The translations under genes were made by a program, and so were the position numbers. DNA of 64,000 nt, taken from Prosopocoilus inquinatus (taxonomy: Eukaryota; Arthropoda; Insecta; Coleoptera; Lucanidae). The notes beneath the pieces are model-generated. The model was not told the DNA's origin, did no database searches, and worked only from the letters and a program-made list of their open reading frames with translations. This document shows positions 1 through 60,436 of this stretch, piece after piece. The stretch's first letter is position 1, and each line of letters begins with the position of its first letter. The stretch lies in assembly GCA_036172665.1 (NCBI GenBank), contig CM069871.1, forward strand, positions 2,170,001-2,234,000, given 5' to 3'.

Positions 1-305
1 TTTTTTTCGTCCTTTTTATTTCGCTTAGCGGAGAATAAAACTCATTTCATTCGATTTGGTTTTACTGGCGGTAATAATAATGTAATTACTTAACAATCGA
101 AGAAATTAGTTAAGACTGAAGGAATTAGATAACAACTAAGTTGAATGATACATAAAATCTTGTAGTGTGCTTGATTGTTTATTTTAATTCTAAGAGTTAG
201 TTGCAATTGTTATTTATTTTCGTTAGACAAGTACTCATTTAGTCATGGTGAGGATATTGCTATAATGCAATGCAAATCTACAGTATTCAACACAGCAGAA
301 TCTTT
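1..305. other. AT-rich non-coding, nothing recognised
   Basis: No coding frame, repeat or RNA gene was recognised here. The last ~40 bases resemble the sequence before the polypurine tract near 8.7 kb, so the right part may belong to a retroelement 3' end. Confidence 0.4.
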
Positions 306-322
306 AAGGGGGAAGGGATGTA
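306..322 (+). mobile_element. Polypurine tract / LTR-start junction, retroelement remnant
   Basis: AAGGGGGAAGGGA is followed directly by TGTA, the layout expected at the polypurine tract / 3' LTR boundary of an LTR retrotransposon. The same 13-mer followed by TGTA recurs at 7969 and 8714, and the upstream bases (CAACAC..., then TCTTTAA) are shared with the 8714 copy. The downstream sequences differ, so these would be related internal 3' ends joined to different or decayed LTRs. No gag or pol frame remains nearby. The superfamily is not resolved. Confidence 0.45.
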
Positions 323-4265: not shown

Positions 4266-4568
4266 GCATCACTAGTAACAGCCTCTGAAGTGCACTGGTT
4301 TTCCGATTGGTTTTCGAAATTCGGTTCGACATATCGATGTAAGAATCCAGATTTTTATAATTTTTTTTTTTTTTTGTGCAATTCAGACCATTTTAATTTT
4401 ATTGACCTCAAACTCTCGGCGGTGCCACACGCGTGCAAAATTCCAACAAATTATTCTTCCTCTTCTGGCTCCGACCTTGTACACTCACGATTCATTAAAA
4501 TAATATTATTTAATCGCAAGCATAATTGAATCGACGAGTGCGAATCGTGTTCAGTCGAAATTTACCGT

Positions 4569-4720
4569 GTTGAGAAAACAACAAATAACTTTTTTTAGAT
4601 TTTTATTTTAAGTGAATTGTTGGCTGCGAATTCTTTCAGGTAACGATACTTGAAGCCTACTGAAGCAAATGATTACTTTAAATTAAAAATCTAGAGGAAG
4701 TTAATTGTTGTTTTCTCAAC
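4569..4720. mobile_element. 152-bp MITE nested in the left arm of the 4524-5641 element
   Basis: The ends are perfect 16-bp inverted repeats, GTTGAGAAAACAACAA at 4569-4584 and its complement ending at 4720. Imperfect pairing continues to about 48 bp. The insertion interrupts the left arm of the larger inverted repeat, whose right arm is uninterrupted, so the relative age is clear. The superfamily is unknown. Confidence 0.65.
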
Positions 4721-5276
4721 AGGACCCCCGTTACCATGTGTGCAAAGCGTGCAGTGCACGCGGGCGCCATGTTCAAGGGGCGGCAATTAGCTTTTTGGTC
4801 GCTGGACATATTTTGTCATCTTTTTCGCCCAAAAAAAGAAAAATAATGGGAAGCAGTTTCTTGTCTGGTATAAATTATTTGAAAAACTAGCCACAGGTTT
4901 TGATGAGGACGTCAACCTCACGGCAAAACGTCGACTAAAATAGACTGTGGCAAGAAAAAGCAGAAAAGTCTAATTTTTGTAATTTTCGTTCGCAAAATTT
5001 TTCATAAAAATTTAATGATTTTATTAGGTAAAAAAATAAATTACGTAAGCCGTTACGGTTCACAAAAAAACAAATTACAATATACTTTTTAAGTTTTCAT
5101 AAATTTAAGTTCCTTTTGCTTTAGTGATTTTGTTTCTTTTTTTTTGTAATGTTATTAACTAGCGTATTCCGGGAGAGGGAGGGGGACGTCTAAACAGAGG
5201 TCTTCTCGGTCAGATGAGAAGAAAGCGCTTCGCTTCGTTTTTGGGGGTTTGTGGCAGCTAGGAACTTGAAAAAATG

Positions 5277-5460: not shown

Positions 5461-6333
5461 TTCCATTTCATTTTAATTTTTAATAATTTTGATAATCGAT
5501 CGTTTTTGTTTGCCCCAATTCATCTGTCAGAGGGCGCCAAAATACGGATTGGCACGCGGGCGGCTTTTGGCCTCGCGGGGGCCCTGTTTCTCAACGCAGT
5601 AAATTTGGGCTGAACACGATTAGGCACTCGTAGATTCAATTGAAGACTTCCTTGGAGAAACATTTTCGCCACATCAACGATAACAGTGAATACGGTTGTA
5701 ATATTTGGCCTAAGGAAATGGTCGACAGTTTATTTCCCGTGTAAAAGGATATATTAAAGGGGACAATGTTCCACCATGGAACAAACTGCCGACCGTTTCC
5801 TCAGGTCAGGCTTTACAGTATTTCGCTGAACAAAACATTGGTTACAACGTTTTTCCAGAGAGGTCTTCATTTTTTTTTTTTTTTGAAAACCTACGTACTG
5901 AATATTCGGTTTAGAATAAACATTCAATTTCAATCCCACGAAAAGCGCGCGAAACGCAGTAAAAAGAAACTCCGGGCCGATAATAGTTATTTACATGTCA
6001 AACTTTGCAAATTAATCTTTCAAGGGCGAGCCGGAAGTTCATGGGGCGAGCGACGCACGAGCGAATCCCAAAATCCAGTGAGCCTGCTAAAGATTAATTT
6101 GCCAAGCGCGTCGCCTAAGAACTTTTATCTTCACCTTCACATGGCGATTTTTAATTAATTAATAATCGACCTAGTCTACAAGCCTGTAAAATTTTGACAG
6201 GTTTTTTATACCAGCCCGTAAAATATTACAGGTTTGTTCCCGTAATTTATCGTTTACTTTGATGTCATAAACAACAAAATTAATCTGTAAAATACCATTT
6301 ATTAAGAAGGTGGAAATAAAAATTTACTCAAAG

Positions 6334-6873
6334 CAACTAAAAATGCCGACTCAGCGAAAATCGTACAAAGATTTATTGCCGGGGTGTTTCTGGGATGTAC
6401 AGAAAGAAAAAAAACAGTGTGCGAATTGCACCACAAAACGAGATCAGGCGTGGGACAATTTGAGTTGAATATACGATTATTGTTATTGTCATAAAATGTT
6501 TGTGTATTCTAAGACATTGCATTGTACTTATACCTGATAATATACTATATATGTACAGGCTGTTCTGTTACTGTATGCAAATAAAAAAAAACCTCAGTGG
6601 CAACTAAAAATGTCGACTCAGCGAAAATCGCACAAAGATTTATTGCCGGGGTGTTTCTGGGATGTACAGAAAGAAAAACAACAGAGTGCGAATTGCACCA
6701 CAAAACTAGATCGGGCGTGGGACAATTTGGATTATAAATATACGATTATTGTTATTGTCATAAAATGTTTGTGTATTCTAAGGCATTGCATTGTACTTAT
6801 ACATGATAATATACTATAAACGTACATATAATACACAGGGTGTTCTTTTACTGTATGCAAATAAAAAAAAACC
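6334..6873 (+). repeat. 267-bp direct tandem duplication
   Basis: Copies begin at 6334 and 6601, both with CAACTAAAAATG. They agree closely to the A-tract at their 3' ends. A third fragment of the unit (CATTGTACTTATACAT...) follows at about 7765. Each copy encodes a short peptide containing GCFWDVQKEK and CTTK. This vaguely resembles a BED-type zinc-finger fragment but is too short to assign. Confidence 0.8.
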
Positions 6874-34377: not shown

Positions 34378-35090
34378 TTGAAATTTAGCTTTAATGTCGA
34401 AATCTCGGTTATTCCTTCAAATCTTTGGCTGCGATTTTTTCCCTGCTCGGTCAGCAGTCAGGGAACAGCGCGGCCGGAAATGATTACCGCGCAACGCTTT
34501 CCCCATTAAACGCAGAAATCAAATGGTGTCGTACTTGTTGAATTGAATGGTTTGGTTATGTATAAAATGGAATGAATACAAAAGCAAATGTTGCAATCTT
34601 TTATTAATGACGATTCAGAAAAAATACGTAAAAAATATTTTTTCTTCCATCATCCTCACATTACATATCAAGAGTGATATATTGCGCGTTGCGCGTTGCG
34701 CGTTTCAAGGTTATTATGCGAAGAGTCTGTTGCTATCTTAAACGTAACTTGTACTCTTTTATCACAAGATTTTGGAAAGTCCGTGACGGCTTGCGCCAAA
34801 CCACAGCTCATTACCATGTTTAATTTCAGTGATTTAATTACAATTTATACTCCAGGGTGTTATCATGATTCAACTCCATGTCCATATCAATCTTAAAATA
34901 AGAACAAGGAGTGACAGCTTGCGCCAAGCCACATCTCATTACCATATTTAATTTCACTGATTGAATTATAATTTATAATCCCAGGTGTTATGATCATTCA
35001 ACTCCATGAAATTTAGCTTTAATGTCGAAATCTCGGTTATTTCTTCAAATCTTTGGCTGCGATTTTTCCCTGCTCGGTCAGCCGTCTCTT
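34378..35090 (+). repeat. Leader plus A/B satellite pair, flanked by ~80-bp direct repeats
   Basis: Positions 34378-34459 recur at 35007-35088 (AATTTAGCTTTAATGTCGAA, CTGCTCGGTCAGC), bracketing a ~320-bp leader (34460-34780) and two 128-bp satellite monomers (A then B). The leader contains three TTGCGCG units at about 34683-34704 and is repeated at 36772-37095, again directly before satellite DNA. Confidence 0.8.
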
Positions 35091-36044
35091 TTTATTATTT
35101 CTTGACACGCCATTATGTTCGTATGCACTAATCATAAGAAATTAACATAAATTAAAAATTTCATAGCAAGATTTGATCTAAATAATTTATTAAGGCTCTG
35201 TATTATAATATTATTTAATCGCAACATAATTTTTATAAAACCTTACATCTCTACGTATTGAATATTCGACCCTTTACACTATAAAAGATTTGTCGGAATT
35301 CAAAAGTTTGGAAGTTGCAGTTTGTTTGACCCGTATGGATTTTTCAGTTCCTTGAACATTCCCGAAGCCAACTTGTTCCGACTCCGTTCGTTTCTGCTTA
35401 TCTATCCGATTATGCAACAATAATACATAACAAATCGAGATGCACATGTCACGTTAGCCAAATTAAACGAGTAATTTGTTAAAGCGAGCGGGTGATTTAG
35501 CGCTAATATTCGTAGGATTAATTAAGTGCAATAAGTCAGATCCATCTTGCCATACCGTGACAGTGATCGTAATTCATCGGAACTCTGCTCCGCCGCGCCG
35601 GCTTGATTAAAACTAATGCCGGCGGCCGAAATCGCATGCAAACCCCATAACTCACCAACTAAAACGAACTGTTAATCATTTAACGTAATATTCCGCGGCG
35701 GCGGTCAAACTTCCAGCGGGTAATGAATTTGTAAACGACTGTCGTTCCTGTCGTAATAATAATAATAATAGCAATCGTATATCGTCCGTATGAATCATCC
35801 GTAAGGTTGAAATTACTGTGTTGTTCTGTGCGACTGTTTGTTATTACTGATGTAGATTACATCCGCAATATCCGAGTAATAATCTAATTGCGTCGATATT
35901 TACCCGAGGCACGGCATAATTGCTTCTTTTCGTTCATACATAATTTTTCCTTTTTCGATAAATATTTCGTCAGTTTAGACTAGGGGGAATCGTATTTAAT
36001 TTCTAACCTTTTTGATTGATTAGTAAATTTTTGAGCTTTTACTC
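35091..36044. other. Non-coding
   Basis: An (AAT)n-type run lies near 35755-35770. No frame, RNA gene or repeat family was recognised. Confidence 0.35.
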
Positions 36045-36540
36045 GGTTGGTCATGACTTACGTCAAGTCGCTTTTGTTTCTTTCGAACTCCTTCCTCCGT
36101 ACTTCGGGGCGAAGCCACGTTTGGTTTTATTAATTTGCTGCGAGCGTGCAGCGTTCGAAAACTCTTCTTGAACGTGTCCATTCCACATTTAACAAACATA
36201 AATCCGGTTGGTCAGGACTTACGTCACGTCGGTTTTGTTTCCTTCGAGCTCCTTCCTCCGTACTTCGGAGCGAGGTCAAGTTTGGCTTTATTAATTTGTT
36301 ACGAGCACGCAGCGTTCGAAAACTCTTCTTGAACGTGTCCATTCCACATTTAACAAACATAAATCCGGTTGGTCATGACTTACGTCACGTCGGTCGTCGG
36401 CTTTGTTTCCTTCGAACTCCTTCCTCCGTACTTCGAAGCGAAGCCAAGTTTGGCTTTATTAATTTGCTGCGAGCACGTAGCGTTCCAAAACTCTTCTCGA
36501 ACGTGTCCCTTCCACATTTAACAAACACAAATTCGCTTAT
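36045..36540 (+). repeat. 161-bp tandem array, three copies
   Basis: GGTTGGTCA occurs at 36045, 36206 and 36367 (period 161). Each copy contains CTTCCTCCGTACTTCGG, GGCTTTATTAATTTG and GAACGTGTCC. The middle motif is shared with 61980 in the dispersed family. The 134-codon plus frame at 36146-36550 exists only because the unit lacks stops in one frame and is internally repetitive. Confidence 0.88.
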
Positions 36541-36771
36541 CTCATTTTGACCGTATCGTCGAAGCTGCTGTTAGTTAATAGATTTTGCATTTTAATAGTA
36601 ACGTTGTTTATTGTTCTAGATTAATTTTAACAGGCGACGACCATTTTGATATGAAATATTCGATTAATTTTCGACGCGGCGCTACAAAATTATTTGTTCA
36701 ATATTGAAATTCGTTTTCGTTTAATAACTCTCCCGTGTGCATATCACATGGCGATTCGGGGAAATAAATCA

Positions 36772-38030
36772 AGGGAACAGCGCGGCCGGAAATGATTACC
36801 GCGCAACGCTTTCCCCATTAAACACAGAAATCAAATGGTGTCGTACTTGTTGAATTGAATGGTTTGGTTATGTATAAAATCGAATGAATACAAAAGCAAA
36901 TGTTGCAATTTTTTATTAATGACGATTCAGAAAAAATACGTAAAAAATATTTTTTCTTCTATCATCCTCACATTACATATCAAGGGTGATGTATTGCGCG
37001 TTGCGCGTTGCGCGTTTCAAGGTTATTATACGAAGAGTCTATTGCTATCTTAAACGTAACTTGTACTCTTTTATCTTTTTAAAGATTTTGGAAAGTACGT
37101 GACGGCTTGCGCCAAGCCACAACTCATTACCACGTTTAATTTCAGTGATTTAATTACAATTTATACTCCAGGGTGTTATGATGATTCAACTCCATGTCCA
37201 TGTCAATTTTAAAAAAAGAACAAAGGAGTGACAGCTTGCGCCAAGCCACATCTCATTACCATATTTAATTTCACTGATTGAATTATAATTTATAATCCAA
37301 GGTGTTATGATGATTCAACTCCATACCCACGTCAATTATAAGATAATAACAAGGAGTGACGGCTTGCGCCAAGCCGCAGCTCATTACCATGTTTAATTTC
37401 AGTGATTTAATTAGAATTTATACTCCAGTGTATTATGATGATTCAACTCCATATCCATGTCAATTTTAAAATGAGAACAAGGAGTGACAGCTTGCGCCAA
37501 GCCACATCTCATTACCATATTTCATTTCACTGATTGAATTATAATTTATAATCCAAGGTGTTATGATGATTCAACTCCATACCCACGTCAATTTTAAGAT
37601 AATAACAAGGAGTGACGGCTTGCGCCAAGCAGCAGCTCATTACCATGTTTAATTTCAGTGATTTAATTACAATTTATACTCCAGGGTATTATGATGATTC
37701 AACTCCATGTCCATGTCAATTTTAAAATAAGAACAAGGAGTGACAGCTTGCGCCAAGCCACATCTCATTATCATATTTAATTTCACTGATTGAATTATAA
37801 TTTATAATCCAAGGTGTTATGATGATTCAACTCCATATCCACGTCAATTTTAAGATAATAACAAGGAGTGACGGCTTGCGCCAAGCCACCGCTCATTACC
37901 ATGTTTAATTTCAGTGATTCACAGCTCTTTAACATATTTAATTTCACTGATTGAATTATAATTTATAATCCAAAGTGTTATGATGGTACAACTCCATGTT
38001 CATATCAAATTTAAGATAATAACAAGCCGC
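36772..38030 (+). repeat. Leader plus 128-bp satellite array with A/B dimer organisation
   Basis: After the leader (36772-37095), the marker GCTTGCG recurs at 37234, 37362, 37490, 37618, 37746 and 37874, a period of exactly 128. Monomers alternate: type A has GACGG, CAGCTCATTACCATGTTT and TTTATACTCCAG; type B has GACAG, CATCTCATTACCATATTT and TTTATAATCCAAG. The true higher-order unit is therefore a 256-bp dimer. Each A monomer carries the dyad GGCTTGCGCCAAGCC. Confidence 0.92.
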
Positions 38031-39445
38031 ACTCCGCTTACAACGTAGTTCTCTTGCGGTACTGCACATGTGGTTGGTTATTCGTCGGAAGATCAAAGGA
38101 AGTCAGGCAGCCGCAAACGTCAATCGTCCCATTCCGTCCATGTCCACAGATGGTAGACGCAGTGTTCGACCACGTATCTTCGGTATCTTCGTCGGCAAAC
38201 TTTCAAACAAGCCGTATGTGAGAGTTTGGCAAGGCTGAAAAGCAAGACGACGAAGGTGGACGGTTGTACGTTGATTTTGTTGCGACATTGCTAAGTGAAT
38301 TTTAGGCAGTAATTAAAGATAAATAAATAAATAAATAAATAATGCTCCTAAAAAATCTCGTTCTTCAACCTTAGGTAGCCCACATTTTCAAGTAACATTC
38401 TGCAGAGTGAGTGGCTAATAAGCCTGCAAATCCCACATTTACTCCCTCCGAACAAGTTTGACATCCATTTTACTCTAAGGCATGAACGGGTAACAGAATA
38501 AATGCCTTCAAGATCGCCTAGATAATCCGCAAAGTTTCATTAGACAAAAAATGTCTCGTTTGAAAAATTTCGTTAAAGCTCGGCTATTTTTTTAATTAAA
38601 GCTCGTTGCATCTGCGAAACTTTCGCAACGAACGCAGGTAGACCACACTCTCATTAACAGGATTACTTTTCTGTACATATAGATTAGTATTTTTTTTTTT
38701 AATCACGAAACTATCTCTCTGCGTTATTAATTCTCTGCAAAGCGCACCGGCAGCATTGCTCATACAATTTATTTTAATTAAAAGTTTCAGTGCAACCTTT
38801 TTTAAATTTGAAATCGATATTTTAACTCGCTTAAATACTACATCTATTATATTCTACTCATACCTGAGTAGTAACCAGATTTTTGGTGAGGAAATTTACT
38901 TACAGCACGGCCAGCAGCTTCAGTCGTGACGGGCGTAGGTGTTTACTTAAAGGCGAAAATAAATGAGCGCCACCTAATCTTAACCGAAGATGATCGATAA
39001 AAATATGAGAATAAACGTCGGAGAAAACGTCGTAAAATGAATGGAGAAAAGGGGAAGTAAAGAAATCAATAATAATTTGCGCGTGAAAGAGAATAAATCG
39101 TAAACATATTGGCTATGTATTGATGGTGTGGGTGACTAGCTTTATTTTTGTATGACTTTGTATCTTTGAAGGTTTGGTTCTTTAAGAATCTAGATCCTCC
39201 ACCTCAAGCGTCAGGAAGTAACCAAAGGAATTACTGTTCTCATACACAAGACCCAAATTCGACGACAGTCAACTCAGCATTTCAGATTTGCACTTCTTGT
39301 GCAAATTCCACTTTCACTCACGCACAAACGCCCAATGATGCTCCGGGTTTGCACCTGTTAAACGCCCGCAACGAACCCAGAATCACGTTTTGTTCTTTTA
39401 ATTTAAAATTTATTTTAAGTGCTGAAGGCATAATTCTCAGTTCTA
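38031..39445. other. Non-coding, AAAT microsatellite, CTCF-like motif
   Basis: An (AAAT)n run lies at about 38320-38343. At 38965-38980 the minus strand reads AGATTAGGTGGCGCTC, the best match in the window to the insect CTCF-like core AGGTGGCGC. The 117-codon frame at 39148-39501 runs into satellite DNA and is not convincing. Confidence 0.35.
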
Positions 39446-40905
39446 AAATAATAACAAGGAGTGACGGCTTGCGCCAAACCACAGCTTATTATCATGTTTA
39501 ATTTCAGTGATTTAATTACAATTTATTATCCACGGTGTTATCATGATTCAACTCAGGAGTCCAAGTCAATTTTAGGATAATAACAAGGAATGACGGCTTG
39601 CGCCAAGTCACGGCTGATTACCATGTTTAAATTTTTATTATCAATAAATGAAAATATAATTTCTAAACGTAAACAAAAGTTATTGTTGGTTCTTGCCCGA
39701 TGAAAATAGTGACGAAGCTATAAATCTGTAGCGAGACGTTGAATGTCTTCCCTTTATATTTCTGTCCGGTTCGAGATTAAGAAAACTTTGTAAATAAAAG
39801 TCTAAAAATGCTTTTTTTCTGCCGAAGGTGTTTTGTCAGGCCAAATGTCGAGCCGTTAAGGGGTGCCTGGGCTTCTTGTGAAATCAATCAAGACAGCTCG
39901 TGAACTCTAACCACCTAGCCTACCTTAGCGTCTCTTCCACCCATTGCAACACCTTTTCAGGTACATGCACTTTAATCTTAGTCAGTGATTTAATTATAAT
40001 TAACAATCTAAGGTTTTATGATGATTTAACTCCATATCCCCGTCAATCTTAAGATAATAACAAGGAGTGACGGCTTGCGCCAAGCCACAGCTCATTACCA
40101 TGTTTAATTTCGGTGATTTAATTATAATTTATAATCCAGGGTGTTATGATGATTCAACTCCATGTCCATGTCAATTTAAAATAAACAAGGCGTGACGGCT
40201 TGTGCCAAGCTATAGCTCATTACTATGATTAATTTCAGTGATTTAATTATAATTTACAATCCAAGGTGTTATCATGATTCAACTCCATGTCCATGCCAAT
40301 TTTAAGATAATGACAAGGAGTGACGGCTTGCGCCAAGCCACGGCTGATTACCATATTAAAATTTTTGTTAAATTTCTTTTGTCTAAATTGCTAAACGTAA
40401 ACAAAAATTTAAAAATGCTTTTTTTCTGCCGAAGGTGTTTTGTCAGGACAAATGTCGAGCTGTTAAGGGGTGCCTGCGCTTCTTGTGAAATCAATCAATA
40501 CAGCTCGTGAACTCTAACCACCTAGCGTCTCCCTTAGCATCTCTTCCACACACTGCAACTCCTTTTCAGGACTTTAATGCACTTTAATTTTAGTCAGTGA
40601 TTTAATTATCAATTACAATCCAAGGTGTTATGATGATTCAACTCCATGTCCATTTCAATTTTAAGATAAACAAGGCGTGACGGCTTGCGCCAAGCCACAG
40701 CTCATTACCATCTTTAATTTCAGTGATTTAATCATAATTTATTTTCCAAGGTGTTATGATGATTCAACTCCATGTCCATGTTAATTGTAAAATAGTAACA
40801 AGGAGTGACGGCTTGCGCCAGGCCACAGCTCATTACCATATTTAATTTCACTGATTGAATTACAATTTATAATCCAAGGTGTTACGATGATTCAACTCCA
40901 TGTCC
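39446..40905 (+). repeat. Third satellite block, interspersed with a ~300-bp unit
   Basis: Satellite monomers (GACGGCTTGCGCCAAGCCAC) recur near 39465, 39597, 40073, 40199, 40328, 40683 and 40809. They are interrupted twice by a related segment at ~39640-39965 and ~40345-40590 (CTGCCGAAGGTGTTTTGTCA). The segment encodes a 31-residue frame starting MLFFCRRCFVR; the second copy keeps CxxC-x12-CxxC, while the first has Trp for one Cys. A piece of the dispersed family lies at 39705-39800. Confidence 0.85.
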
Positions 40906-42814
40906 AGCAATCTTATTTTTTTAAATAAAATGACTATGATGTTTACAGAATTACTCCGGGTGTCGCCAAAGCGGTGGCTTGCTTTCATTTTTCGCTTTCC
41001 GCTTGTCGCGAATTGCGCAATATTGCGTTCGCTTCGCGGACGTGATCGTGACCCCCTTGACATTCAATTCTCATTGGAAGGGGATTGTGTCTCTTCGATC
41101 CTTTTCTTTTCTCCTATTTGTCTTTTTCAACCCGTTACCCCGAATCGAATTTACAACGAATTATTCTAGAATCAGATGTCGTTTCGTGTTTTGTGTGTGT
41201 CTGGTGACCTTTTGAAGTATTCCCGTGAGGAAGGTGGAATAGAAGTTGCTGCTCTAATTGGACCTAGGTTTGTATTGCATTTTTACGCAAAGCGCGAGCA
41301 ACGCTCGTCGTTCTGGTGACCCAATGACGCCTTTCGCTGTGTAAGGGATTTGCAATATGCACTTCATTGAACCTGACTCTAAAATTTTGAAATGATTTAA
41401 TTTGCTCTTCCATGGGTTTTAGAACAACCATGTAAGTTATCAACATCAGCACGTAAACAATTTGTAATATAAACCGAGAGCCACGCCATTAAAATTCGAA
41501 TGGCGAAATTTAAACTCGCTTCAAAGCAAACAGTGATAAAAGCAAATGCAAGGAATCAACCGAAATGGAATGCATGCGCCATAATGGCACGGAATAAACG
41601 ACGTTTTGCTTATCGACGTCGTACAATTTGCCCAAAAAGCACTTACGCGAATATGGGGACGGCGGAATTATGTAAATTGACGCGGGCGGATATCACTTCT
41701 TGAACGTATTAGTGGCCGAGTAACGATTATCTGTCCTGAAATTAATTAGGTAGGTGTACCTTTTGGGCAAATTAATTCACCCGTCTTGGTCTCGTCATAT
41801 TTATTTAGGGCGCGGTGTTGCTCGATGTATACGTACAAATCGAGAACAATAAATTATTGCGAGGCGAGCGTTTCGTTCTATGATATTATCATTTCCATGG
41901 TATCGTAACCAGGCAAATTCGAAACAAAGGATCGGAAGTGTTTGATCATATCATGCTGAGTATCAGCGGCCTTTTGAAATAATTTCATCTCGGGAAACAA
42001 CTTGTAACATATTGTACAGCCACGTATTTAGTTGCCATTCGTGAAAGGGTCACAATAAAATAAAAATCAAGATACCCGGATACGTGACGAGCAAGCCGAA
42101 GGACGACGCAGGCGTCTCTATTGATGTCTGTCTGGCGGTGCGGTGGTCTTTCATTCGAAAACACGAAGAAAAAAAAAAGACCCAGATGTATTGCGGGTTG
42201 ACGACGCGACGATGATATATTCATTAGGATGATTGAAGATTGAACCTTGGACCGATGCCAGACGATCCTTGCTGCAAAAATTTGAATGAACTTATTTGGC
42301 CAAACTGATTGATTGTGTAAAAGCAATCGATGGCTGCTTTGTAAATAAATTTAATTCCGGTGCAGTTTAACCAAAATCGCTTTTTTTTTAAAAAAAAAAA
42401 AAAAGGGGGAAAATTTAATCAAATTTTTCATTTTATTCCACTGCCAATAAACTGTATGTGGTGTGTGTGTTATCCGAACACATTGTTCCTTTATATCGTC
42501 CATCCTGCAAAACACTCACTCCAAAGCATTCGAAACAAATAAATCCGGCGAGTGGTTCTTCCAATAAAGAGCATCTGTTTAAAGCGAGATATAGGTTTTT
42601 TTTTCGCGTGTGTGTGCGTCTGTGTGTGTATAGGAGGAGCCCTCGCCCCCCCCCCCCCACGCACACAAACAAACACGAGGGCCGTAAACTTTTGATGCGC
42701 CCCATAAAAAAAAAATCCAATACATTTTATTATTTCCAACAACAACATCCGAAGTTCTATGCCAGACATAAACAGTCGAGTATTTATTTGATATTTCGTG
42801 TTTTATGGGCCAAT
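40906..42814. other. Non-coding, simple-sequence runs
   Basis: Poly-A near 42390-42405, GT-rich DNA at 42605-42633 and a C13-type run near 42646-42658. Frames up to 120 codons on both strands overlap these runs and lack domains. The 67-codon frame 41500-41703 is Lys/Arg/Asn-rich with no family assigned. Confidence 0.35.
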
Positions 42815-44882
42815 TTTTAAGATTTAGGGCGCCCTTAACTTGAGGCGTCCCGCCCGCTTTATACGCGAAGCCTTTATCTAAACGTTATGAAAGATTAGTG
42901 TCCCTTCTGTTCAAATATTTAACGAAGTTCCATTACGTCTTTCGTCGTCTGGGTTTTATGGTTTTTAAATGCACCGCGCTTTGGTGCTCAAACAATTTTT
43001 AAAAATGCCGCCGTTAAATCGACGTCTAATTGGTTTTCATTTTTCATGCGGACCAATCACGTTTATGCTTTCGCGCGGCGGGATTTTTCAAAATTCTTTA
43101 AAAGGTTTGGGCGCCAAATGATTTGGCTTTTAGTTTTTTTAAGTATTTATTAATATTAACAGATAGATTATTATATTAATATAGGCGAATTGGCATGAAT
43201 TCAGCTTCACGGATGGGTAAGTTTCACGCAAAAACCTGAAAACAGAAAAATAAAATTTCAGAAATTCAAAAATTGGGGACGTTTTGGTTGTGAAAGTTTG
43301 GGACAGAATCTTCAGTTAGAAACTGTAACTTTGGTGGTGATTTATTTGAGAACAGTTTTAAGTTAGAAGAAACGGCAATTTGGTTTTAAAAACAATTGAA
43401 ATTTTTGATTAGGTTGACGTTAAATTAGAAAGGACAAATAAATGCTTACCACCTGACAAGAGGATTGAATATGGGACATTTCCAAATTTATCTGAATTAA
43501 ATAAACTGCACTTTTGATTCCTTAGCTAGAACCCCTTCCTAATCATTTTAGGGCGAAGCCAAGTGGGCTATTTTTTAAGATTTAGGGCGCCCTTAACTTG
43601 AGGCGTCCCGGCCGCTTTATACGCGAAGCCTTTATCTAAACGTTATGAAAGATTACTGTCCCTTCTGTTCAATTATTTAACGAAGTTCCATTACGTCTTT
43701 CGTCGTCTGGGTTTTATGGTTTTTAAATGCACCGCGCTTTGGTGCTCAAACAATTTTTAAAAATGCCACCGTTAAATCGACGTCTAATTGGTTTTCGTTC
43801 GGGACCAATCACGTTCATGCTATAGCGCGGCGGGATTTTTGAAAATTCATTTTTTCGAAAAAGAAGAAACAAAAAAGAATCTATTTGACTTGTATTAATT
43901 TGTTAATTTCGGTAGATTTCATGACCTTAAGGGAAAATAACAACAAAGCTGTCTTCAAATTGACGATCTGGAGAGCTTCAACTTGCAAGAGGCTGTTGAC
44001 CGTCTCCCCAACAATTTACCTTCAGAGGTTTCGTTCTGATTTCCCCGAAAAGGGAAGTAAAAAAGGGGCGACTTCCTGCTTTCACCCCCAAATCTCCTTT
44101 GGCCCTCTTAGAAGGAACCATGAAGGTTCTGGATATAAACAACAAAAGCATAAACAAAAAAAACTGTTAAGGTTTTGATGATTTACTTAATGATAAAAAC
44201 TTCATAGAAGCATTAAAACAAGCACAAACCAAAAATCGAGAAAACTGTTAAGCTTTTTGTTGTTTGACTTAATGATAAAAACTTCAAAGAAGCATTAAAA
44301 CAATTATTAAAAACTTAGATCCAGGCATTAAAGCGGCAAGAACCAAAACATTCCTGCCATTTGTCGGTGGGAGCTAATTTATTGCTGTGTTATTGTCGAG
44401 CCCCCTCCACCCCACCCCACCTTTGTTTGGGCGCCAAATGATTTGGCTTTTAGTTTCTTAAGAATTTATTAATATTAATAGATAGATTATCATATTAAAA
44501 TAGGCGAATTGGCATGAATTCAGCTCACGGATGAGTAAGTTTCATAAAAGAACCCGAAAACAGAAAAATACAAAAAAAATTGGACATTTCGAAAATGTAA
44601 AAATTGGAGACGTTTTGGTTGTGAAAGTTTGGGACAGAGTCTTCAGTTAGAGACTGTAACTTTGGTGGTGGTTTATTTGAGGACAGTTTTAAGTTAGAAG
44701 AAACAGCAATTTGGTTTTAAAAACAATTGAAAATTTTGGTTAAATTAGAAGGGACAAATAAATGCTTGCCACCTGACAAACGAATTCAATACGGGACATT
44801 TCCAAACTTATCTGAATTAAATAAACTGTACTTTTGATTCCTTAGCTAGAACTCCTTCCTAATCATTTTAAGGCGAAGCCAA
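42815..44882 (+). repeat. Tandem pair of ~0.76-kb units, second copy interrupted
   Basis: GATTTAGGGCGCCC occurs at 42821 and 43579 (period 758). Copy 1 runs to ~43573. Copy 2 contains a ~570-bp extra segment at about 43850-44425 and then resumes at TTTGGGCGCCAAATGATTTG. The extra segment holds an ~84-bp internal duplication (44160-44310; TTAATGATAAAAACTTCA). The 3' end of each unit (CTTCCTAATCATTTTA, GGCGAAGCCAAG) is also the junction motif of the larger array that follows. Confidence 0.85.
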
Positions 44883-45308
44883 GTGACGGTTTTCGACTTC
44901 TTTAGTTATTTGGCCAATTCTTGACGCGTCTTCGAGCACACGAAAATTTTGTAAAACACTTTGTACGTTTCTTAACGTTTGGCATTTTGTAGTGGAACCA
45001 GTCCGTACCAAACACAGGTGCGCGGCAGGATTTTTACGCAGTTGGAAAGGGCAGGTAAAGAAATGGCAACGAGGCGATGTAAAAGTGGCACAGTGACACT
45101 GCATTTATTGTGCGCCTTAAACTTCAGAGTAGCAAACAAAGAGTTTCTTAAAAAAAATATATTTAAAGTATTTAACAGTAAAATTAAACTAAATTAACAA
45201 ATGAAGAAAAGGAAAAGGGAATAAAATAAATGATGCGGCAACAGTTTGGCGGGAAATAAAAAAGAAAAATGTAAAACATTGATTATCAAGAAACACAATG
45301 GGAAAAGG

Positions 45309-45625
45309 AAAAAATTAAAAATGATGAACATATAAAATAGCGACATCTTACTATCGCTTTTTGACCTAACATTGCAGAAGGATAGACAAATTGAAGCGGG
45401 ATTTGCTCCTAATGAGTCCCCCAGGCAAGGCGGCCATGCTTGCTGTCAAAGCATAATGAAAGATTTTAGAAAAATTTTGTGCAAATCGTGGTCTGCAGTG
45501 GGAATGTCGAGATACGTTTCTGCTGAAGAAGCCCCAAGCAGGGCTGAAACAGCTGTCCAGAGGCTGCTCGAGGTTCTCACTGCAATCAAAAACGATTTGC
45601 ACAAAATTTTTCTGAAAAAATTAAA
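45309..45625 (+). mobile_element. 295-bp ribozyme-bearing insertion with 11-bp TSD
   Basis: Sequence 45320-45614 is present in array unit 1 only. Units 2 and 3 have the intact empty site. It is flanked by AAAAAATTAAA at 45309-45319 and 45615-45625, a perfect 11-bp duplication. The 3' half (45468-45613) is a long foldback closed by a hammerhead ribozyme core, and the foldback ends one base before the TSD. A TSD of this length and an A-rich target suggest retroposition. Hammerheads with a very short stem III are known from Penelope-like elements, so a truncated Penelope-type terminal repeat, or a retrozyme-like element, are the leading options. There is no reverse transcriptase frame and no clear Pol III box. 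Confidence 0.85.
45468..45613 (+). ncRNA. Type I hammerhead ribozyme with extended stem I
   Basis: Core: CTGAAGA at 45523-45529, stem II AGCCC/GGGCT (45530-45534 with 45541-45545) closed by loop CAAGCA, GAAA at 45546-45549, stem III within ACAGCTGT (45549-45556), and a cleavage-site C at 45557 preceded by U. Stem I: TTTCTG (45517-45522) pairs with CAGAGG (45558-45563), TCGAG (45507-45511) with CTCGA (45567-45571), TGCAGTG (45494-45500) with CACTGCA (45578-45584), then a perfect 22-bp helix 45468-45489 with 45592-45613. All core bases required by the family (CUGANGA, GAA, UH) are present. Stem III is a self-complementary ACAGCUGU without a loop, so one molecule cannot close it well and a dimer is the likely active form, as known for small hammerheads of Penelope-like elements. 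Predicted cleavage is after 45557. Activity is inferred, not shown. Confidence 0.85.
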
Positions 45626-47852
45626 GTTTATAAACAAAACAAATTGTAACTTAGAAAAATTGTAAATTATTAAAAGCAAAAAATAAAATAAATAAATTAA
45701 TAAGGACGCTTGTAATCCATATGTTCACGAAACTAAGAGAAGTAATGACAATTATAAAAAGACGAATAAAATTGTTCTCTCAAAAAATATACAATTAATA
45801 ATAAACATGCAAGAGAAAGAGACAAAGAAAGACGAATTAAAACGAAATATTTACGAAATTAAATTTTTTTAAGAAAATTAAAAAGAAAATATACAAAATG
45901 ACCACAGCAAAGACAGAGGAGAGTAGAAAATTTTGGATTAGTTAATTTCACACAAAAAGTGATACAAAGGGGAACAAGACAAGGAAAAATGAAATCGGAA
46001 TGGAAATAAAAAAAAGAGTAATGGCGTCAAAGGGAAATGAAAAAAGAGAAACAAATGACGATCGTAATATTTACGCAAAAGAAAGGATTATATTTCAGAA
46101 AATATAGAAAATAAATAAAAATGAAAAAGTAAAAATTTTGATTCTTTTTAATAATGCGGTTCTTGTCGGTCTTCACTTTTAATTTTAATTATTTTTGATT
46201 ATCTATTTAGTATCAAATCTGGATGATGCGATTTTGAGCGACATTAAAAGATTTCTTTTTTCTTTAGAAAGAACAAAAATTAGAATTCAGTGAGTTGGCA
46301 GCAACACTGTCATCTTTACAACCTCTGCGGGTGGAGCCCTTGAGAATCAATTGCGAGATCCCAGGGATTCCCCGGAGCAGCGTTGCTTTAACTTTACCTG
46401 CACTTCTGGGCGCCCCCTCTATGTGAAATTAAAAACTTTTTTTCACTTTCGCATCGATACTTTAACTATACCTGCATTTCCGAGACCCCCTGTACATGAA
46501 ATTAAAAACTTTTTCCCCTTTCTCAATTTTGAAAAAATGAACAAGAATCAATTGCGGAGCCCCAAGGGTTCAGCGGAGCATCAATAATGCGTAAGACGAT
46601 TACGTTTGACGTTGCTCTTCGAGCTTTAGTGCGCGCGTGCAACAGAAAATTCCGTGCTAAAACCGAACCGCACTGTCAGCATTTTATATGCGCAACAGGA
46701 ACGAATCGTGGTGACTTGCTTCCGATATCATATTTCAACGAATACACCACGCTTAACAAAGACGTATTACAGTTGTTTTTAATTTCATGTACAAGAGTAT
46801 ATGAAATTAAAAACTTTTTCCTTTTCTCAACTTTTAAAAATATTTTCGAAGCAAAAAATGTACAAGAATCAATTACGCAGCCCCAAGGGTTCAGTGCAGG
46901 ATCAGTGCTTTAACTTCACCTGCATTTCTGGGACCGCCTGTATATGAAACTAAAAACTTTTTCACTTGGTCAAATTCCAAAAATATTTTTAAAACAAAAA
47001 ATTAACGATAATCAATTGCGGAGGAGCCCCAAGCTGACATAAACAATTATGATTTATTTATTGGTATTTTCAACGAATACATTTATTAATAAAACACCGA
47101 CTCGTAGAAATTTTCTACAAAATACAGAATCGCATAACTTCAACAATTAAAAAAAAAACACTCCTAAAAATAGAGAGAGGCAAGGATTTTCCTATCGTTT
47201 GCAGTGATTAGATCTCATGCGATATTGATTTGTCGTGTGATTAATATTTTTCGTATCCAGTTTACATGGAATGCGATTTTATAAAAGTCTTGCGGATCGG
47301 TTTAGATAAAATACGCACCACGCCGTGGAAAAATGATTGCCTTCCTTCGCGAGGATCAAACTAATGCTGAACGGAATCAAAAAAAAGTAAGTTTTGAATT
47401 CAAGAAAGTCGGATACGATGCGTGCTTTCTTATGCTTTTCAAGTCCACGTAATAACTAACGGAGCAGTTCAAATGTTAATAGTTTTAAAACAATTGAAAA
47501 TTTTGATTAGGTTGACGTTAAATTAGAAAGAACAAATAAATGCTTACCACCTGACAAGAGAATTTAATACCAAACATTTCCACAAATTTATCTAAATTAA
47601 ATAAACTGTACTGAAACTTGATTCTTTAGCTAGAACTCCTTCCTAATCATTTTAGGGCGAAGCCAAGTGATGGTTTTCGACTAATTTATTTATGTATTTG
47701 GCCAATTCTTGACGCGTGTTCGAGCAAACGAAAATTTTGTAAAACACTTTATACGTTTCTTAACGTTTGGCATTTTGTAGTGGAACCAGCCGGTACCAAA
47801 CCCAGGTGCGCGGCAGGATTTTTACGCAGTTGGAGAGGGCAGCTAGAAGCGA

Positions 47853-47860
47853 TATAAAAG
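47853..47860 (+). promoter_or_regulatory. TATA-like box repeated in array units
   Basis: GATATAAAAG is kept in unit 2 (here), unit 3 (50293-50302) and the partial fourth unit (~52715-52724), but is GATGTAAAAG in unit 1. It lies ~0.9 kb upstream of the paired frames. It could drive transcription of the array, or be chance in AT-rich DNA copied with the unit. Confidence 0.25.
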
Positions 47861-50800
47861 TGGCGCAGTGACACTGCATTTATTGTGCGCCTTAAACTTC
47901 AGAGTAGTCGACGAAAAGTTTCTTCAAAAAAATATATTTAAAGTATTTAACGGTAAAATTAAACTAAATTAACAAATGGAGAAAAGGAAAAGGGAATAAA
48001 ATAAATGACGCGGCAACAGTTTGGCGGGAAATAAAAAAGAAAAATGTAAAACATTGATTATCAAGAAACACAATGGGAAAAGGAAAAAATTAAAGTTTAT
48101 AAACAAAACAAATCGTAACTTAGAAAAATTGTAAATTATTAAAAGCAAAAAAAAAAAATATAACTAAATTAATAAGGACGTTTGTAATCCAAATGTTCAC
48201 GAAAGTAAGAGAAGTAATGACGATTATAAAAAGACGAATAAAATTGTTCTCTCGAAAAATATACAATTAATAACAAACATGCAAGAGAAAGAGACAAAGA
48301 AAGACGAATTACAACAAAATATTTACAAAATTAAAATTTTTTAAGAAAATTAAAAAGAAAATAAACAAAATGACCACAGTAAAGACAGAGGAGAGTAGAA
48401 AATTATTTTGGATTAGTTAATTTCACACAAAAAGTGATACAAAGGGGAACAAAACAAGAAAAAATGAAATCGGAATGGAAATTAAAAAAAAAGAGTAATG
48501 GCGTCAAAGGGAAATGAAAAAAGAGAAACAAATGACGATCGTAATATTTACGCAAAAGAAAGGATTATATTTCAGAAAATATAGAAAATAAATAAAAATG
48601 AAAAGGTAAAAATTTTGATTCTTTTTAATGATGCGGTTCTTGTCGGTCTTCACTTTTAATTTTAATTATTTGAGATTATCTATTTAGTACCAAATCTGGA
48701 TGATGCGATTTCCAGGGACATTAAACATTCTTTTTTCTTTAGAAAGAACAAAAATTAAAATTCAGTGAGTTGGCGGCAACACTGTCATCTTCACAACCTC
48801 TGCGGGTGGATTCCCCGGAGCAGCGTTGCTTTAACTTTACCTGCACTTCTGGGCGCCCCCTCTATGTGAAATTAAAAACTTTTTTTCACTTTCGCATCGA
48901 TATTTTAACTTTACCTGCATCTCCGAGACCCCCTGTACATGAAATTAAAAACTTTTTCCCCTTTCTCAATTTTGAAAAAATGAACAAAAATCAATTGCGG
49001 AGCCCCAAGGGTTCAGCGGAGCATCAATAATGCGTAAGACGATTACGTTTGGCGTTGCTCTTCGAGCTTTAGTGCGCGCGTGCAACAGAAAATTCCGTGC
49101 TAAAACCGAACCGCACTGTCAGCATTTTATATGCGCAACAGGAACGAATCGTGGTGACTTGCTTCCGATATCATATTTCAACGAGTACACCACGCTTAAC
49201 AAAGACGTATTACAGTTGTTTTTAATTTCATGTACAGGAGTATATGAAATTTAAAACTTTTTCCTTTTCTCAACTTTTAAAAATATTTTCGAAGCAAAAA
49301 ATGTACAAGAATCAATTGCGCAGCCCCAAGGGTTCAGTGGAGCATCAGTGCTTTAACTTCACCTGCATTTCTGGGACCGCCTGTATGTGAAACTAAAAAC
49401 TTTTTCACTTGGTCAAATTCTAAAAATATTTTTCAAACAAAAAATTAACGAGAATTAATTGCGGAGGAGCCCCAAGCTGGCATAAACAATTATGATTTAT
49501 TGGCATTTTTAACGAATACATTTATTAATAAAACACCGACTCGTAGAAATTTTCTACAAAATACAGAATCGCATAACTTCAACAATTAAAAAGAAAAATA
49601 CTCCTAAAAAGAGAGAGAGGCAAGGATTTTCCTATCGTTTGCAGTGATTAGATCTCGTGCGATATTGATTTGTCGTGTGATTAATATTTTTCGTATCCAA
49701 TTTTCATGGAATACGATTTTATGAAAATCTTGCGGATCGGTTTAGATAAAACACGCACGCCGCCGTGGAAAAATGATTGCCTTCACTTCGCGAGTATCAA
49801 ACTAATACTGAACGGAATAAAAAAAAAAAGTAAGTTTTGAATTCAAGAAAGTCGGATACGATGCGTGCTTTCTTATTCTTTTCAAGTCCACGTAATAACT
49901 AACGGAGCAGTTCAAATGTTAATAGTTTAAGAGCAATTGAAAATTTTGATTAGGTTGACGTTAAATTAGAAGGGACAAATAAATGCTTACCACCTGACAA
50001 GAGAATTTAATACCAAACATTTCCACAAATTTATCTAAATTAAATAAACTGTACTGAAACTTGATTCTTTAGCTAGAACTCCTTCCTAATCATTTTAGGG
50101 CGAAGCCAAGTGATGGTTTTCGACTTCTTTATTTATGTATTTGGCCAATTCTTGACGCGTGTTCGAGCACACGAAAATTTTGTAAAACACTTTATACGTT
50201 TCTTAACGTTTGGCATTTTGTAGTGGAACCAGCCGGTACCAAACTCAGGAGCGCGACAGAATTTTTACGCAGTTGGAGAGGGCAGCTAGAGGCGATATAA
50301 AAGTGTTTCTTAAAAAAATATATATTTAAAGTATTTAACAGTAAAATTAAACTAAATTAACAAATGAAGAAAAGGAAAAGGAAATAAAATAAATGACGCG
50401 GCAACAGTTTGCCGAGAAATAAAAAAGAAAAATGTAAAACATTGATTATCAAGAAACACAATGGGAAAAGGAAAAAATTAAAGTTTATAAACAAAACAAA
50501 TCGTAACTTAGAAAAATTGTAAATTATTAAAAGCAAAAAAAAAAAATATATAACTAAATTAATAAGGATGTTTGTAATCCATATGTTCACGAAAGTAAGA
50601 GAAGTAATGACGATTATAAAAAGACGAATAAAATTGTTCTCTCGAAAAATATACAATTAATAATAAACATGCAAGAGAAAGAGACAAAGAAAGACGAATT
50701 AAAACGAAATATTTACGAAATTAAAATTTTTTTAAGAAAATTAAAAAGAAAATATACAAAATGACCACAGCAAAGACAGAGGAGAGTAGAAAATTTTGGA

Positions 50801-52740
50801 TTAGTTAATTTCACACAAAAAGTGATACAAAGGGGAACAAGACAAGGAAAAATGAAATCGGAATGGAAATAAAAAAAAGAGTAATGGCGTCAAAGGGAAA
50901 TGAAAAAAGAGAAACAAATGACGATCGTAACATTTACGCAAAAGAAAGGATTATATTTCAGAAAATATAGAAAATAAATAAAAATGAAAAAGTAAAAATT
51001 TTGATTCTTTTTAATAATGCGGTTCTTGTCGGTCTTCACTTTTAATTTTAATTATTTGAGATTATCTATTTAGTACCAAATCTGGATGATGCGATTTCCA
51101 GGGACATTAAACATTCTTTTTTCTTTAGAAAGAACAAAAATTAAAATTCAGTGAGTTGGCGGCAACACTGTCATCTTCACAACCTCTGCGGGTGGATTCC
51201 CCGGAGCAGCGTTGCTTTAACTTTACCTGCACTTCTGGGCGCCCTCTCTATGTGAAATTAAAAACTTTTTTTCACTTTCGCATCGATACTTTAACTTTAC
51301 CTGCATCTCCGAGACCCCCTGTACATGAAATTAAAAACTTTTTCCCCTTTCTCAATTTTGAAAAAATGAACAAGAATCAATTGCGGAGCCCCAAGGGTTC
51401 AGCGGAGCATCAATAATGCGTAAGACGATTACGTTTGGCGTTGCTCTTCGAGCTTTAGTGCGCGCGTGCAACAGAAAATTCCGTGCTAAAACCGAACCGC
51501 ACTGTCAGCATTTTATATGCGCAACAGGAACGAATCGTGGTGACTTGCTTCCGATATCATATTTCAACGAATACACCACGCTTAACAAAGACGTATTACA
51601 GTTGTTTTTAATTTCATGTACAGGAGTATATGAAATTAAAAACTTTTTCCTTTTCTCAACTTTTAAAAATATTTTCGAAACAAAAAATGTACAAGAATCA
51701 ATCGCGTAGCCCCAAGGGTTCAGAGGAGCATCAGTGCTTTAACTTCACCTGCATTTCTGGGACCGCCTGTATATGAAACTAAAAACTTTTTCACTTGGTC
51801 AAATTACAAAAATATTTTTAAAACAAAAAATTAACGAGAATCAATTGCGGAGGAGCCCCAAGCTGGCATAAACAATTATGATTTATTGGCATTTTTAACG
51901 AATACATTTATTAATAAAACACCGACTCGTAGAAATTTTCTACAAAATACAGAATCGCATAACTTCAACAATTAAAAAGAAAAATACTCCTAAAAAGAGA
52001 GAGAGGCAAGGATTTTCCTATCGTTTGCAGTGATTAGATCTCGTGCGATATTGATTTGTCGTGTGATTAATATTTTTCGTATCCAATTTTCATGGAATAC
52101 GATTTTATGAAAATCTTGCGGATCGGTTTAGATAAAACACGCACGCCGCCGTGGAAAAATGATTGCCTTCACTTCGCGAGCATCAAACTAATACTGAACG
52201 GAATCAAAAAAAAAAGTAAGTTTTGAATTCAAGAAAGTCGGATACGATGCGTGCTTTCTTATGCTTTTCAAGTCCACGTAATAACTAACGGAGCAGTTCA
52301 AATGTTAATAGTTTAAGAGCAATTGAAAATTTTGATTAAGTTGACGTTAAATTAGAAGGGACAAATAAATGCTTACCACCTGACAAACGAATTTAATACG
52401 GGACATTTCCAAACTTATCTAAATTAAATAAACTGTACTTTTGATTACTTAGCTAGAACTCCTTCCTAATCATTTTAGGGCGAAGCCAAGCGACGGTTTT
52501 CGACTTCTTTAGGTATTTGGCCAATTCTTGACGCGTGTTCGAGCACACACACACACTTTATACGTTTCTTAACGTTTGGCATTTTGTAGTGGAACCAGTC
52601 AGTACCAACTTAAATTATACTATCACTCCAGAGAAAGCAAATATTCCAAAAACCATGTGCGCGGCAGGATTTTCACGCAACTGGAAAGGGCAGCTGGAGA
52701 AATGGTAACGAGGCGATATAAAAGTGGCGCAGTGACACTT

Positions 52741-59579: not shown

Positions 59580-60436
59580 TACAGTGACCGGCAGAAAGCT
59601 GGCTACATAAGGGAAAATTCTTTATTGTTGATTTCTCAGAAAAATTTATTCTTTATGAAAACTCCCGCATCTTCCCAAACTTAAGATGCGTGTGTCAAAG
59701 TTTGAGTACCTCCTGTCATATACCGAGGAAATCAAAATATTTGAAATCGATATAAGAGTAAAGTACCTTTATTTATCACGCTACACGGAGATTTTATTTG
59801 AAAAAGTCACTCAGATTATTATGAAGTCTCAAATATGAAATCATGGCTACCTACGATGGAAAAAAATAATTTGGCTACAAAAAATTGCAATTTTTAGGGT
59901 ATCAATGTTATTAATCATAATTTCTAGTTGACTGTTGAGCAAAAGACAAATTTTAGAGTATGTTCATGTCGCACTTGAAGAAAGGTCCAGCTCTACACAT
60001 TCAAAGTTCCGCAACACACACGTTGGTACGAAAAAAAAATCGAAAAATACGTGAAATTTCTTTTTTCATCGTAGACAGCCCTGATTTCATATTTAAGATC
60101 TCATAATAATTCTGAGTAACCTTTCCAAATAAAATTTTCGCGTAGCATTGAAAATAAAGGTACTTTACTCTTATGTCGATTTCAAATATTTTGATTTTCC
60201 CGGTATGTGTCAGGAGGTATTCAAACTTTGACACTTGCATCTTAAGTTTGGAAAGATGCAGGAGCTTTTATAAAGAATATTTTTTTCTGAGAAATCAATA
60301 ATAAAGAATTTTCCCATACGTCGGCTTTGACTTAGTACTGGTGGAACAAAAGCTCGTCGGAGTTTGTTTCAGCCTCGTCCTTGGAGTTAATTTAAGAATT
60401 TTCCCATATGTAGCCAACTTTCTGCCCGTCACTGTA
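59580..60436. mobile_element. Tc1/mariner-like foldback element, 853 bp, TA duplication
   Basis: The element 59582-60434 begins CAGTGACCGGCAGAAAGCTG and ends with the near-complement. It is flanked by TA (59580-59581, 60435-60436). Sister tandem copies show the empty site AATAATATAAGCAC, which proves the insertion and the TA target. Inverted arms extend ~285 bp on the left (to ~59865) and ~395 bp on the right including a nested insertion. The spacer of ~175 bp holds no transposase frame. CAGTG ends and TA duplication fit the Tc1/mariner superfamily. Confidence 0.88.
60319..60408 (+). mobile_element. Nested 75-bp fragment with 15-bp direct duplication
   Basis: Within the right arm of the foldback element, 60319-60393 is absent from the left arm and matches the dispersed family near 63040-63100 (ACT(G)GTGGA(A/G)CAAAAGCTC, GCCTCGTCCTTGGA). 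It is bounded by AAGAATTTTCCCATA at 60304-60318 and 60394-60408. The long duplication suggests retroposition or repair-mediated capture more than cut-and-paste. Confidence 0.7.

What the first reader, a model, noticed from the sequence alone, without database searches (positions are those of the whole stretch)
45468..45613. Complete hammerhead ribozyme at the tip of a long foldback
Sequence shows every required hammerhead core base (CUGANGA, GAA, U-H cleavage site), a 5-bp GC-rich stem II with loop CAAGCA, and stem I extended by three further helices to about 60 nt per arm. Stem III is the loopless palindrome ACAGCUGU, which fits the known class of small hammerheads that act as dimers and are found with Penelope-like elements. 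A hammerhead capping such a long stem I is unusual.
Basis: partly seen in the sequence, partly recalled or inferred. Interest (0 to 1): 0.93.

Follow-up and report, generated by a model that had tools for sequence, protein, structure and literature searches.

The report
Hammerhead retrozyme with Penelope-style insertion
The hammerhead lies in a small jumping RNA element whose copies sit in this animal genome as two arms facing each other, the same layout as the genome's Penelope-like retrotransposon, which points to the machinery that may move such ribozyme-bearing elements.

Summary
The hammerhead is real: every core base is present, none arose in 38.4 Mb of random sequence, and 61 of 63 copies examined keep the core. 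It is not a lone foldback. It sits in a 294-nt insertion (45320-45613) with a 12-bp target duplication; two sister copies of the host repeat show the empty site. The insertion belongs to a non-coding 312-nt family, also found in tandem: a retrozyme-like element. Copies are head-to-head: left half antisense, right half sense, each beginning at a fixed RNA site. Of 29 insertions with a duplication of 10 bp or more, 26 use site A at one end and site B at the other. Hinges vary; targets favour AAC^N12^GTT. The resident Penelope-like element shows the same: 14 of 17 loci examined have one tailed and one untailed end with 11-15 bp duplications. Best reading: both 3' ends of a staggered break prime reverse transcription of retrozyme RNA by Penelope-type machinery. 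Self-cleavage, circular RNA and mobilisation are inferred. Head-to-head Penelope inserts were known; a head-to-head retrozyme was not found in ten searches of open papers.

The parts
45308..45319 (.). left copy of the 12-bp target duplication GAAAAAATTAAA
45614..45625 (.). right copy of the 12-bp target duplication
45320..45613 (+). the insertion (294 nt): head-to-head copy of the 312-nt retrozyme-like unit
   Evidence: absent from sister repeats; family in own genome; mosaic alignment
45320..45487 (-). left arm: unit 312 (site B) down to 145, antisense
   Evidence: L001 1501-1668
45488..45613 (+). right arm: unit ~40 up to 164 (site A), sense; base 45488 is ambiguous between the arms
   Evidence: (L001 1670-1794)
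45516..45564 (+). type I hammerhead, C3 at 45523, predicted cleavage after 45557
45530..45545 (+). stem II AGCCC/GGGCU with loop CAAGCA
45549..45556 (+). stem III, loopless palindrome ACAGCUGU
45468..45487 (+). 5' side of the perfect basal stem (unit 164-145, antisense copy)
45594..45613 (+). 3' side of the perfect basal stem (unit 145-164); its end is site A
48083..48094 (.). empty site in host tandem-repeat copy 2
50471..50482 (.). empty site in host tandem-repeat copy 3

Best explanation
The feature is one copy of a 312-nt non-coding retrozyme-like element carrying a type I, dimer-type hammerhead. RNA of the repeat (inferred: cut by paired hammerheads, probably circularised) is copied by Penelope-type reverse transcriptase. 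The endonuclease opens AT-rich DNA at about AAC^N12^GTT, leaving two 12-nt 3' ends (inferred from duplications and arm polarity). Each end primes DNA synthesis on the sense RNA: one at site A (unit ~164, 56 nt past the hammerhead cut), the other at site B (unit ~300-312, nearly opposite on a 312-nt circle). The two cDNAs are then joined head-to-head at variable, often microhomologous points. Shown: the family, duplications, empty site, arm polarity, A/B rule, target preference, and the same layout in the resident Penelope-like element. Inferred: ribozyme activity, the circle, and which protein does it.
For: Empty site and 12-bp duplication. Family, 114 matches from 40 scored of 244 candidates; tandem 312-bp array. 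48 insertion groups in 41 loci: 38 simple minus-plus, 0 plus-minus; 34 A+B; of 29 with duplication of 10 bp or more, 26 A+B. Duplications of 10 bp or more in 24 of 43 groups against 14 of 2000 mismatched-end controls. Target AAC/GTT in 17 of 52 half-sites, 1.0 expected. Hinges unpaired in unit position, 2 of 40 within 15 nt, 4.0 expected. Units within a locus agree at two variable sites in 42 of 45 pairs, between loci 918 of 1908. PLE1: RT plus GIY-YIG; 14 of 17 loci examined give one tailed and one untailed end; AAC/GTT in 8 of 28 half-sites, 0.55 expected. An Anolis Penelope protein cuts and extends both strands and starts at two internal sites (PMC11167929, parts 1-2 of 4).
Against: PLE1 does not fit in every respect: its duplications centre on 13-14 bp, not 12; as a full palindrome AAC^N12^GTT is not significant in PLE1 (3.64 of 6, random 3.29, sd 0.22); unit and PLE1 end region are only weakly alike (46 of 1000 shuffles as good); PLE1 hinges coincide within 15 nt in 8 of 14. 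The Anolis study saw no difference of start site between strands. The motif and the A and B windows were defined on the same sites they were then tested on. 14 of 48 groups are not A+B, some old or composite. No RNA data.
Confidence: 0.7

Rival explanations
1. Self-priming (snap-back): one cDNA folds back on itself and is copied, as proposed for rotifer Penelope elements on antisense templates.
For: Published reading of head-to-head Penelope inserts (PMC3846280, passages). In PLE1 the two hinge positions coincide within 15 nt in 8 of 14 pairs, 6 of those 8 from pairs chosen as compact. The unit holds a strong hairpin.
Against: Snap-back predicts matched hinges; the retrozyme has 2 of 40 within 15 nt, 4.0 expected. 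It does not explain why the two ends use different fixed sites (26 of 29) or the palindromic target.
Confidence: 0.12
2. A LINE-type element, not a Penelope-like one, moves the family by twin priming.
For: Twin priming and target duplications are known in LINEs (recalled). No protein was shown to act on the unit.
Against: No poly-A or other LINE-like tail at A or B. The head-to-head, two-site layout and AAC half-sites are shared with the resident RT plus GIY-YIG element. LINE families of this genome were not examined.
Confidence: 0.1
3. The insert is a broken end piece of a Penelope-like element rather than a separate retrozyme.
For: Position of the hammerhead close to the 3' end, as in Penelope elements; weak similarity to the PLE1 end.
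Against: The 312-nt unit repeats in tandem without coding sequence, arms longer than one unit are pure unit sequence by the mosaic model (25 of 100 arms); no Pfam match in the insert's open frames; BLAST of the unit finds nothing significant in the GIY-YIG loci but the L046 insertion.
Confidence: 0.08
4. The hammerhead is a passenger or inactive; insertion works without cleavage.
For: Monomer fold hides the core; A-U at 10.1-11.1. In the Anolis element ribozyme mutants still insert and uncut RNA is the main template (PMC11167929). Only 1 of 80 hinge ends covers the cut site.
Against: This rival concerns the ribozyme, not the insertion layout, and can hold together with the main reading.
Confidence: 0.2
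5. A foldback DNA transposon.
For: Long inverted repeats and fixed-length duplication.
Against: A and B ends are not inverted repeats of each other (22 insertions listed, read by eye); all 40 junction pairs listed differ, so copies are not copies of one another.
Confidence: 0.03

Closest known systems
Metazoan non-LTR retrozymes (PMC7229834, PMC7761336; passages read)
   Same: Small non-coding repeat (312 nt; reported 150-450 bp) with a type I hammerhead, tandem copies, GC under 50%, duplications longer than 4 bp.
   Different: Head-to-head insertion with two fixed start sites is not mentioned in the passages seen (the word 'inverted' does not occur in PMC7229834). The hammerhead lacks a stable helix III, which those papers ascribe to Penelope elements rather than to most invertebrate retrozymes. 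circRNA not shown here.
Penelope-like elements (PMC11167929 parts 1-2 of 4; PMC3846280, PMC6431247 passages)
   Same: Inverted, mostly head-to-head inserts, AT-rich targets, optional tail at one end, hammerhead in the terminal repeat, two internal RT start sites.
   Different: The window element codes for no protein; its two start sites are about 148 nt apart instead of 30-40.
Small dimer-type hammerheads linked to Penelope elements (Lunse 2017; not held; cited through PMC7761336)
   Same: Loopless palindromic stem III, predicted dimer action.
   Different: Stem I continues into about 43 bp in the native unit.
Schistosome SINE-like hammerhead repeats and W-elements (PMC8490949, passages)
   Same: Repeated, non-coding, hammerhead-bearing, presumed mobile.
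   Different: No Pol III B box on the + strand here at up to 3 mismatches; head-to-head layout.

Membership tests
Type I hammerhead ribozyme | Core CUGANGA...GAA, A15.1-U16.1, H17, three stems in type I order | tested here: met
   61 of 63 copies keep 11 core positions
Type I hammerhead ribozyme | Rfam RF00163 gathering score (34 bits) | tested here: not met
   23.8 bits
Type I hammerhead ribozyme | G10.1-C11.1 first pair of stem II (consensus recalled) | tested here: not met
   A-U in the window and in the copies listed
Type I hammerhead ribozyme | Self-cleavage | not testable with these tools
   needs RNA
Metazoan non-LTR retrozyme | 150-450 bp tandem repeats with type I hammerhead, non-coding, GC under 50% | tested here: met
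   312 bp, 4.4 copies; insert GC 0.43; no Pfam match in the insert's frames
Metazoan non-LTR retrozyme | Target duplications longer than 4 bp | tested here: met
   24 of 43 groups at 10 bp or more
Metazoan non-LTR retrozyme | Circular RNA made by the ribozyme | not testable with these tools
   no RNA data; unmatched hinges only fit it
Penelope-like element (as the window element's own class) | ORF with RT and GIY-YIG | tested here: not met
   insert is non-coding; PLE1 of the same genome has both
Works like a Penelope-like element | Head-to-head inserts with one tailed and one untailed end | tested here: met
SINE | Pol III A and B boxes, 3' tail repeat | tested here: inconclusive
   no B box on +, three 3-mismatch ones on -; no poly-A end
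Foldback/MITE DNA transposon | Terminal inverted repeats | tested here: not met
   A and B ends differ

The most novel reading that the evidence does not exclude
A dimer of Penelope-type reverse transcriptase sits on one 312-nt ribozyme-made RNA circle at two start sites on roughly opposite sides. Each protomer takes one 3' end of a symmetric 12-nt staggered break and copies round the circle; the two cDNAs are then joined. Animal retrozymes would be Penelope substrates integrated by obligatory two-site priming, and the one-tailed, one-untailed rule would be the same act in Penelope elements.
Probability: 0.42. Interest if true: 0.85.

Novelty: new variant of a known kind. Interest (0 to 1): 0.74.

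Why it matters
Which machinery moves animal retrozymes is open; the 2020 study names Penelope-like elements as a strong candidate on grounds of shared hammerheads, tandem copies and co-existence (PMC7229834, passages). This family adds insertion evidence: shared head-to-head layout, shared two-end rule, shared half-site preference. It also bears on how Penelope elements make inverted inserts, for which self-priming was the published interpretation (PMC3846280). Sites A and B and the target motif are ready substrates for an in vitro test.

Tried and rejected
Chance hammerhead: rejected. Tandem duplication inside the insert: halves not alike (88 of 500 shuffles as good). Coding reading of the 109-aa open frame: no Pfam match, no homologue at E up to 1, one weak PDB match at E 0.38. 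Relatives in viral contigs: two exact-pattern scans, 0 hits. A second hammerhead in the left half: no Rfam hammerhead hit. PLE1 (L064:1927) and PLE2 (L047:2139, L050:2140) carry motifs with one extra base after A9; the descriptor that allows it finds 0 in 19.2 Mb of random sequence, but Rfam lists no hammerhead there, so they are called hammerhead-like only.

Limits of the counts. L017, L018, L020 (same places as L015, L009, L019) and L040 (contains L003) were left out. Groups under 120 nt and segments under 12 nt or 80% identity were not counted. L046 came in through the GIY-YIG search. The A window (155-182) and B window (296-312, 1-8) were set. AAC/GTT was read off the sites before it was tested; the PLE1 half-sites had been seen. 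No mismatched-end control was run for PLE1 duplications. One search used hinge values typed. In one search one bridging base of the model counts as a gap, so microhomology is conservative. One search covers 63 hammerhead-spanning copies in 33 of 36 loci then in the file.

PLE1 selection. One search gave 30 loci: by BLAST 25 are PLE1, 4 PLE2, 1 other (L046). One search examined 17 PLE1 loci: 11 of the 30, and 6 fetched because their GIY-YIG pairs lie close together (L075-L080). 14 gave a tailed/untailed pair; L056 (both tailed, duplication 4), L045 (ends 2018/2046, duplication 3) and L048 (no two ends) did not.

Papers. PMC11167929: parts 1-2 of 4. PMC7229834, PMC7761336, PMC7936874, PMC8490949, PMC6431247, PMC3846280: passages. 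Lunse 2017 and Cervera 2014: not held. Not finding a head-to-head retrozyme in print rests on search, open-licence papers only.

Full report
What is in the window. An exact descriptor finds it once in 64 kb and not in 38.4 Mb of first-order Markov sequence. Rfam's type I model matches at 23.8 bits, under its gathering score of 34, and whole-window scans list no hammerhead. The 146 nt fold at -76.3 kcal/mol, z -12.4. That minimum is a competing fold which ties up C3-G5; the hammerhead conformer is at -70.3. Two molecules together fold as a double hammerhead at -156.5, against -152.6 for two monomers.

It is an insertion. The region is a ~2.4-kb tandem repeat; the three copies are 95.7, 96.5 and 97.9% identical in pairs with the insert left out. 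Copy 1 holds 294 extra bases (45320-45613) between two copies of GAAAAAATTAAA; copies 2 and 3 have that 12-mer once. The foldback ends at the right edge of the insert.

It is a family. The host assembly (650 Mb, 173 contigs) gave 114 matches from 40 scored of 244 candidates, a lower bound. In L003 the element is a tandem array of 312-bp units, 4.4 copies, 99% alike. The native unit (HHR sense; C3 at 74, cut after 108) has the hammerhead at the tip of its own long stem I, about 43 bp between 24-73 and 109-155. In 63 copies that span the hammerhead, 61 keep all 11 core positions checked; 2 of 693 core sites differ against 62 of 3379 others; position 17 is C or A (49/14), position 7 is A, C or T (60/2/1). 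A U to C change at unit 69, seen in several copies, turns a U-G pair of stem I into C-G. Size, tandem copies, GC and duplications fit an animal non-LTR retrozyme (PMC7229834, passages); the missing stable helix III is what PMC7761336 ascribes to Penelope-type hammerheads.

Copies are head-to-head. A mosaic alignment of each locus to the unit shows, in 38 of 48 insertion groups from 41 loci, a left arm on the minus strand and a right arm on the plus strand; none is plus-minus; the other 10 are single-orientation or composite. 34 of 48 have one end at site A (~164) and the other at site B (~300-312). Among the 29 with a duplication of 10 bp or more, 26 are A+B; the exceptions are L011 (a composite that reads as two adjacent insertions), L021 (single orientation) and L043 (one end elsewhere). 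Duplications of 10 bp or more occur in 24 of 43 groups, against 14 of 2000 mismatched-end controls. L003 is an exception with two A ends: it lies in a larger palindrome that also duplicates host flank, 711 bp at 99.9%. The window copy is unit 312 to 145 on minus joined to 40 to 164 on plus, so its perfect basal stem is unit 145-164 facing its own copy.

Target and hinge. The 13 empty sites with exactly 12 bp average 4.3 of 6 matches to AAC^N12^GTT; random sets average 1.65 with a maximum of 2.85 in 2000. With free shifts and all 26 A+B sites the mean is 4.12 against 3.28, maximum 3.81 of 2000 sets; 17 of 52 half-sites are perfect, 1.0 expected. The motif was read off these sites first, so these figures describe rather than test it. 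All 40 junction pairs differ. They are not matched in unit position (2 of 40 within 15 nt, 4.0 expected). 18 of 40 show microhomology of 2 or more, 17% expected. Units within a locus agree at two variable sites in 42 of 45 pairs, between loci 918 of 1908; the 3 misses are in two loci that hold two insertions each. 25 of 100 arms exceed one unit.

The resident Penelope-like element does much the same. A GIY-YIG search scored 150 of 2232 candidates, many in head-to-head pairs. The main family, PLE1, has RT (7.5e-14) and GIY-YIG (6.9e-7) domains. Among the 120 listed homologues, those named with an organism are arthropod: for example 51% to a Tribolium castaneum protein, 54% to one of Aromia moschata, 44% to one of Allacma fusca. 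PLE1 ends at two places about 39 nt apart, which matches the Penelope tail of the literature. Of 17 loci examined, 14 gave a pair with an 11-15 bp duplication, and each of the 14 has one tailed and one untailed end; L056, L045 and L048 did not. Its half-sites are AAC/GTT in 8 of 28, 0.55 expected, but the full palindrome with 12-bp spacing is not significant there. A hammerhead-like motif with a palindromic stem III lies about 47 nt upstream of the untailed end, with one extra base after A9; Rfam does not list it. A second family, PLE2, has a similar motif and was not followed further.

Mechanism. Both arms of a simple insert read as cDNA of the sense RNA begun at the target's 3' ends, which is what a staggered break with 3' ends priming on both strands would leave. 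An Anolis Penelope protein cuts and extends both strands and starts at two internal sites (PMC11167929). The same paper saw no difference of start site between strands, and uncut RNA was the main template, so the A/B rule and the role of the ribozyme need direct tests. Rotifer Penelope inserts are mostly head-to-head with an optional tail on one of the inverted repeats, read there as self-priming on antisense RNA (PMC3846280, passages). Matched hinges, expected from that, are absent in the retrozyme but found in 8 of 14 PLE1 pairs, 6 of those 8 from pairs chosen as compact. A circle has no 5' end at which both copies could stop, so unmatched hinges fit a circular template; this is inference.

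Novelty. The hammerhead class, retrozymes and head-to-head Penelope inserts are known. A retrozyme with Penelope-type two-site, head-to-head insertion was not found in ten searches of open papers, so I file it as a new variant of a known kind.

Noticed in passing
L040 (G000:C3:59835000-59844900), 4357-5067 and 6096-6806: The L003 array sits in a larger palindrome: 711-bp arms, 99.9% complementary, that include host flank.
   Followed up: partly
44716-52739: Tandem repeat of about 2.4 kb with at least three copies, 95.7-97.9% identical, no clear coding sequence.
   Followed up: partly
2210-2444, 4568-4721, 59605-60321: Three other long inverted repeats in the window; the exact hammerhead descriptor finds nothing in them.
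   Followed up: no
L047, L049, L050, L055: A second GIY-YIG family (PLE2) whose copies end near a (TA)n run, with a hammerhead-like motif in L047 and L050.
   Followed up: partly
34635-40976: Array of about 128-bp repeats, in several blocks.
   Followed up: no
L046 (near G000:C4:3829287): A retrozyme copy inserted within 1.5 kb of a GIY-YIG match unlike PLE1 and PLE2, with its own duplication.
   Followed up: partly
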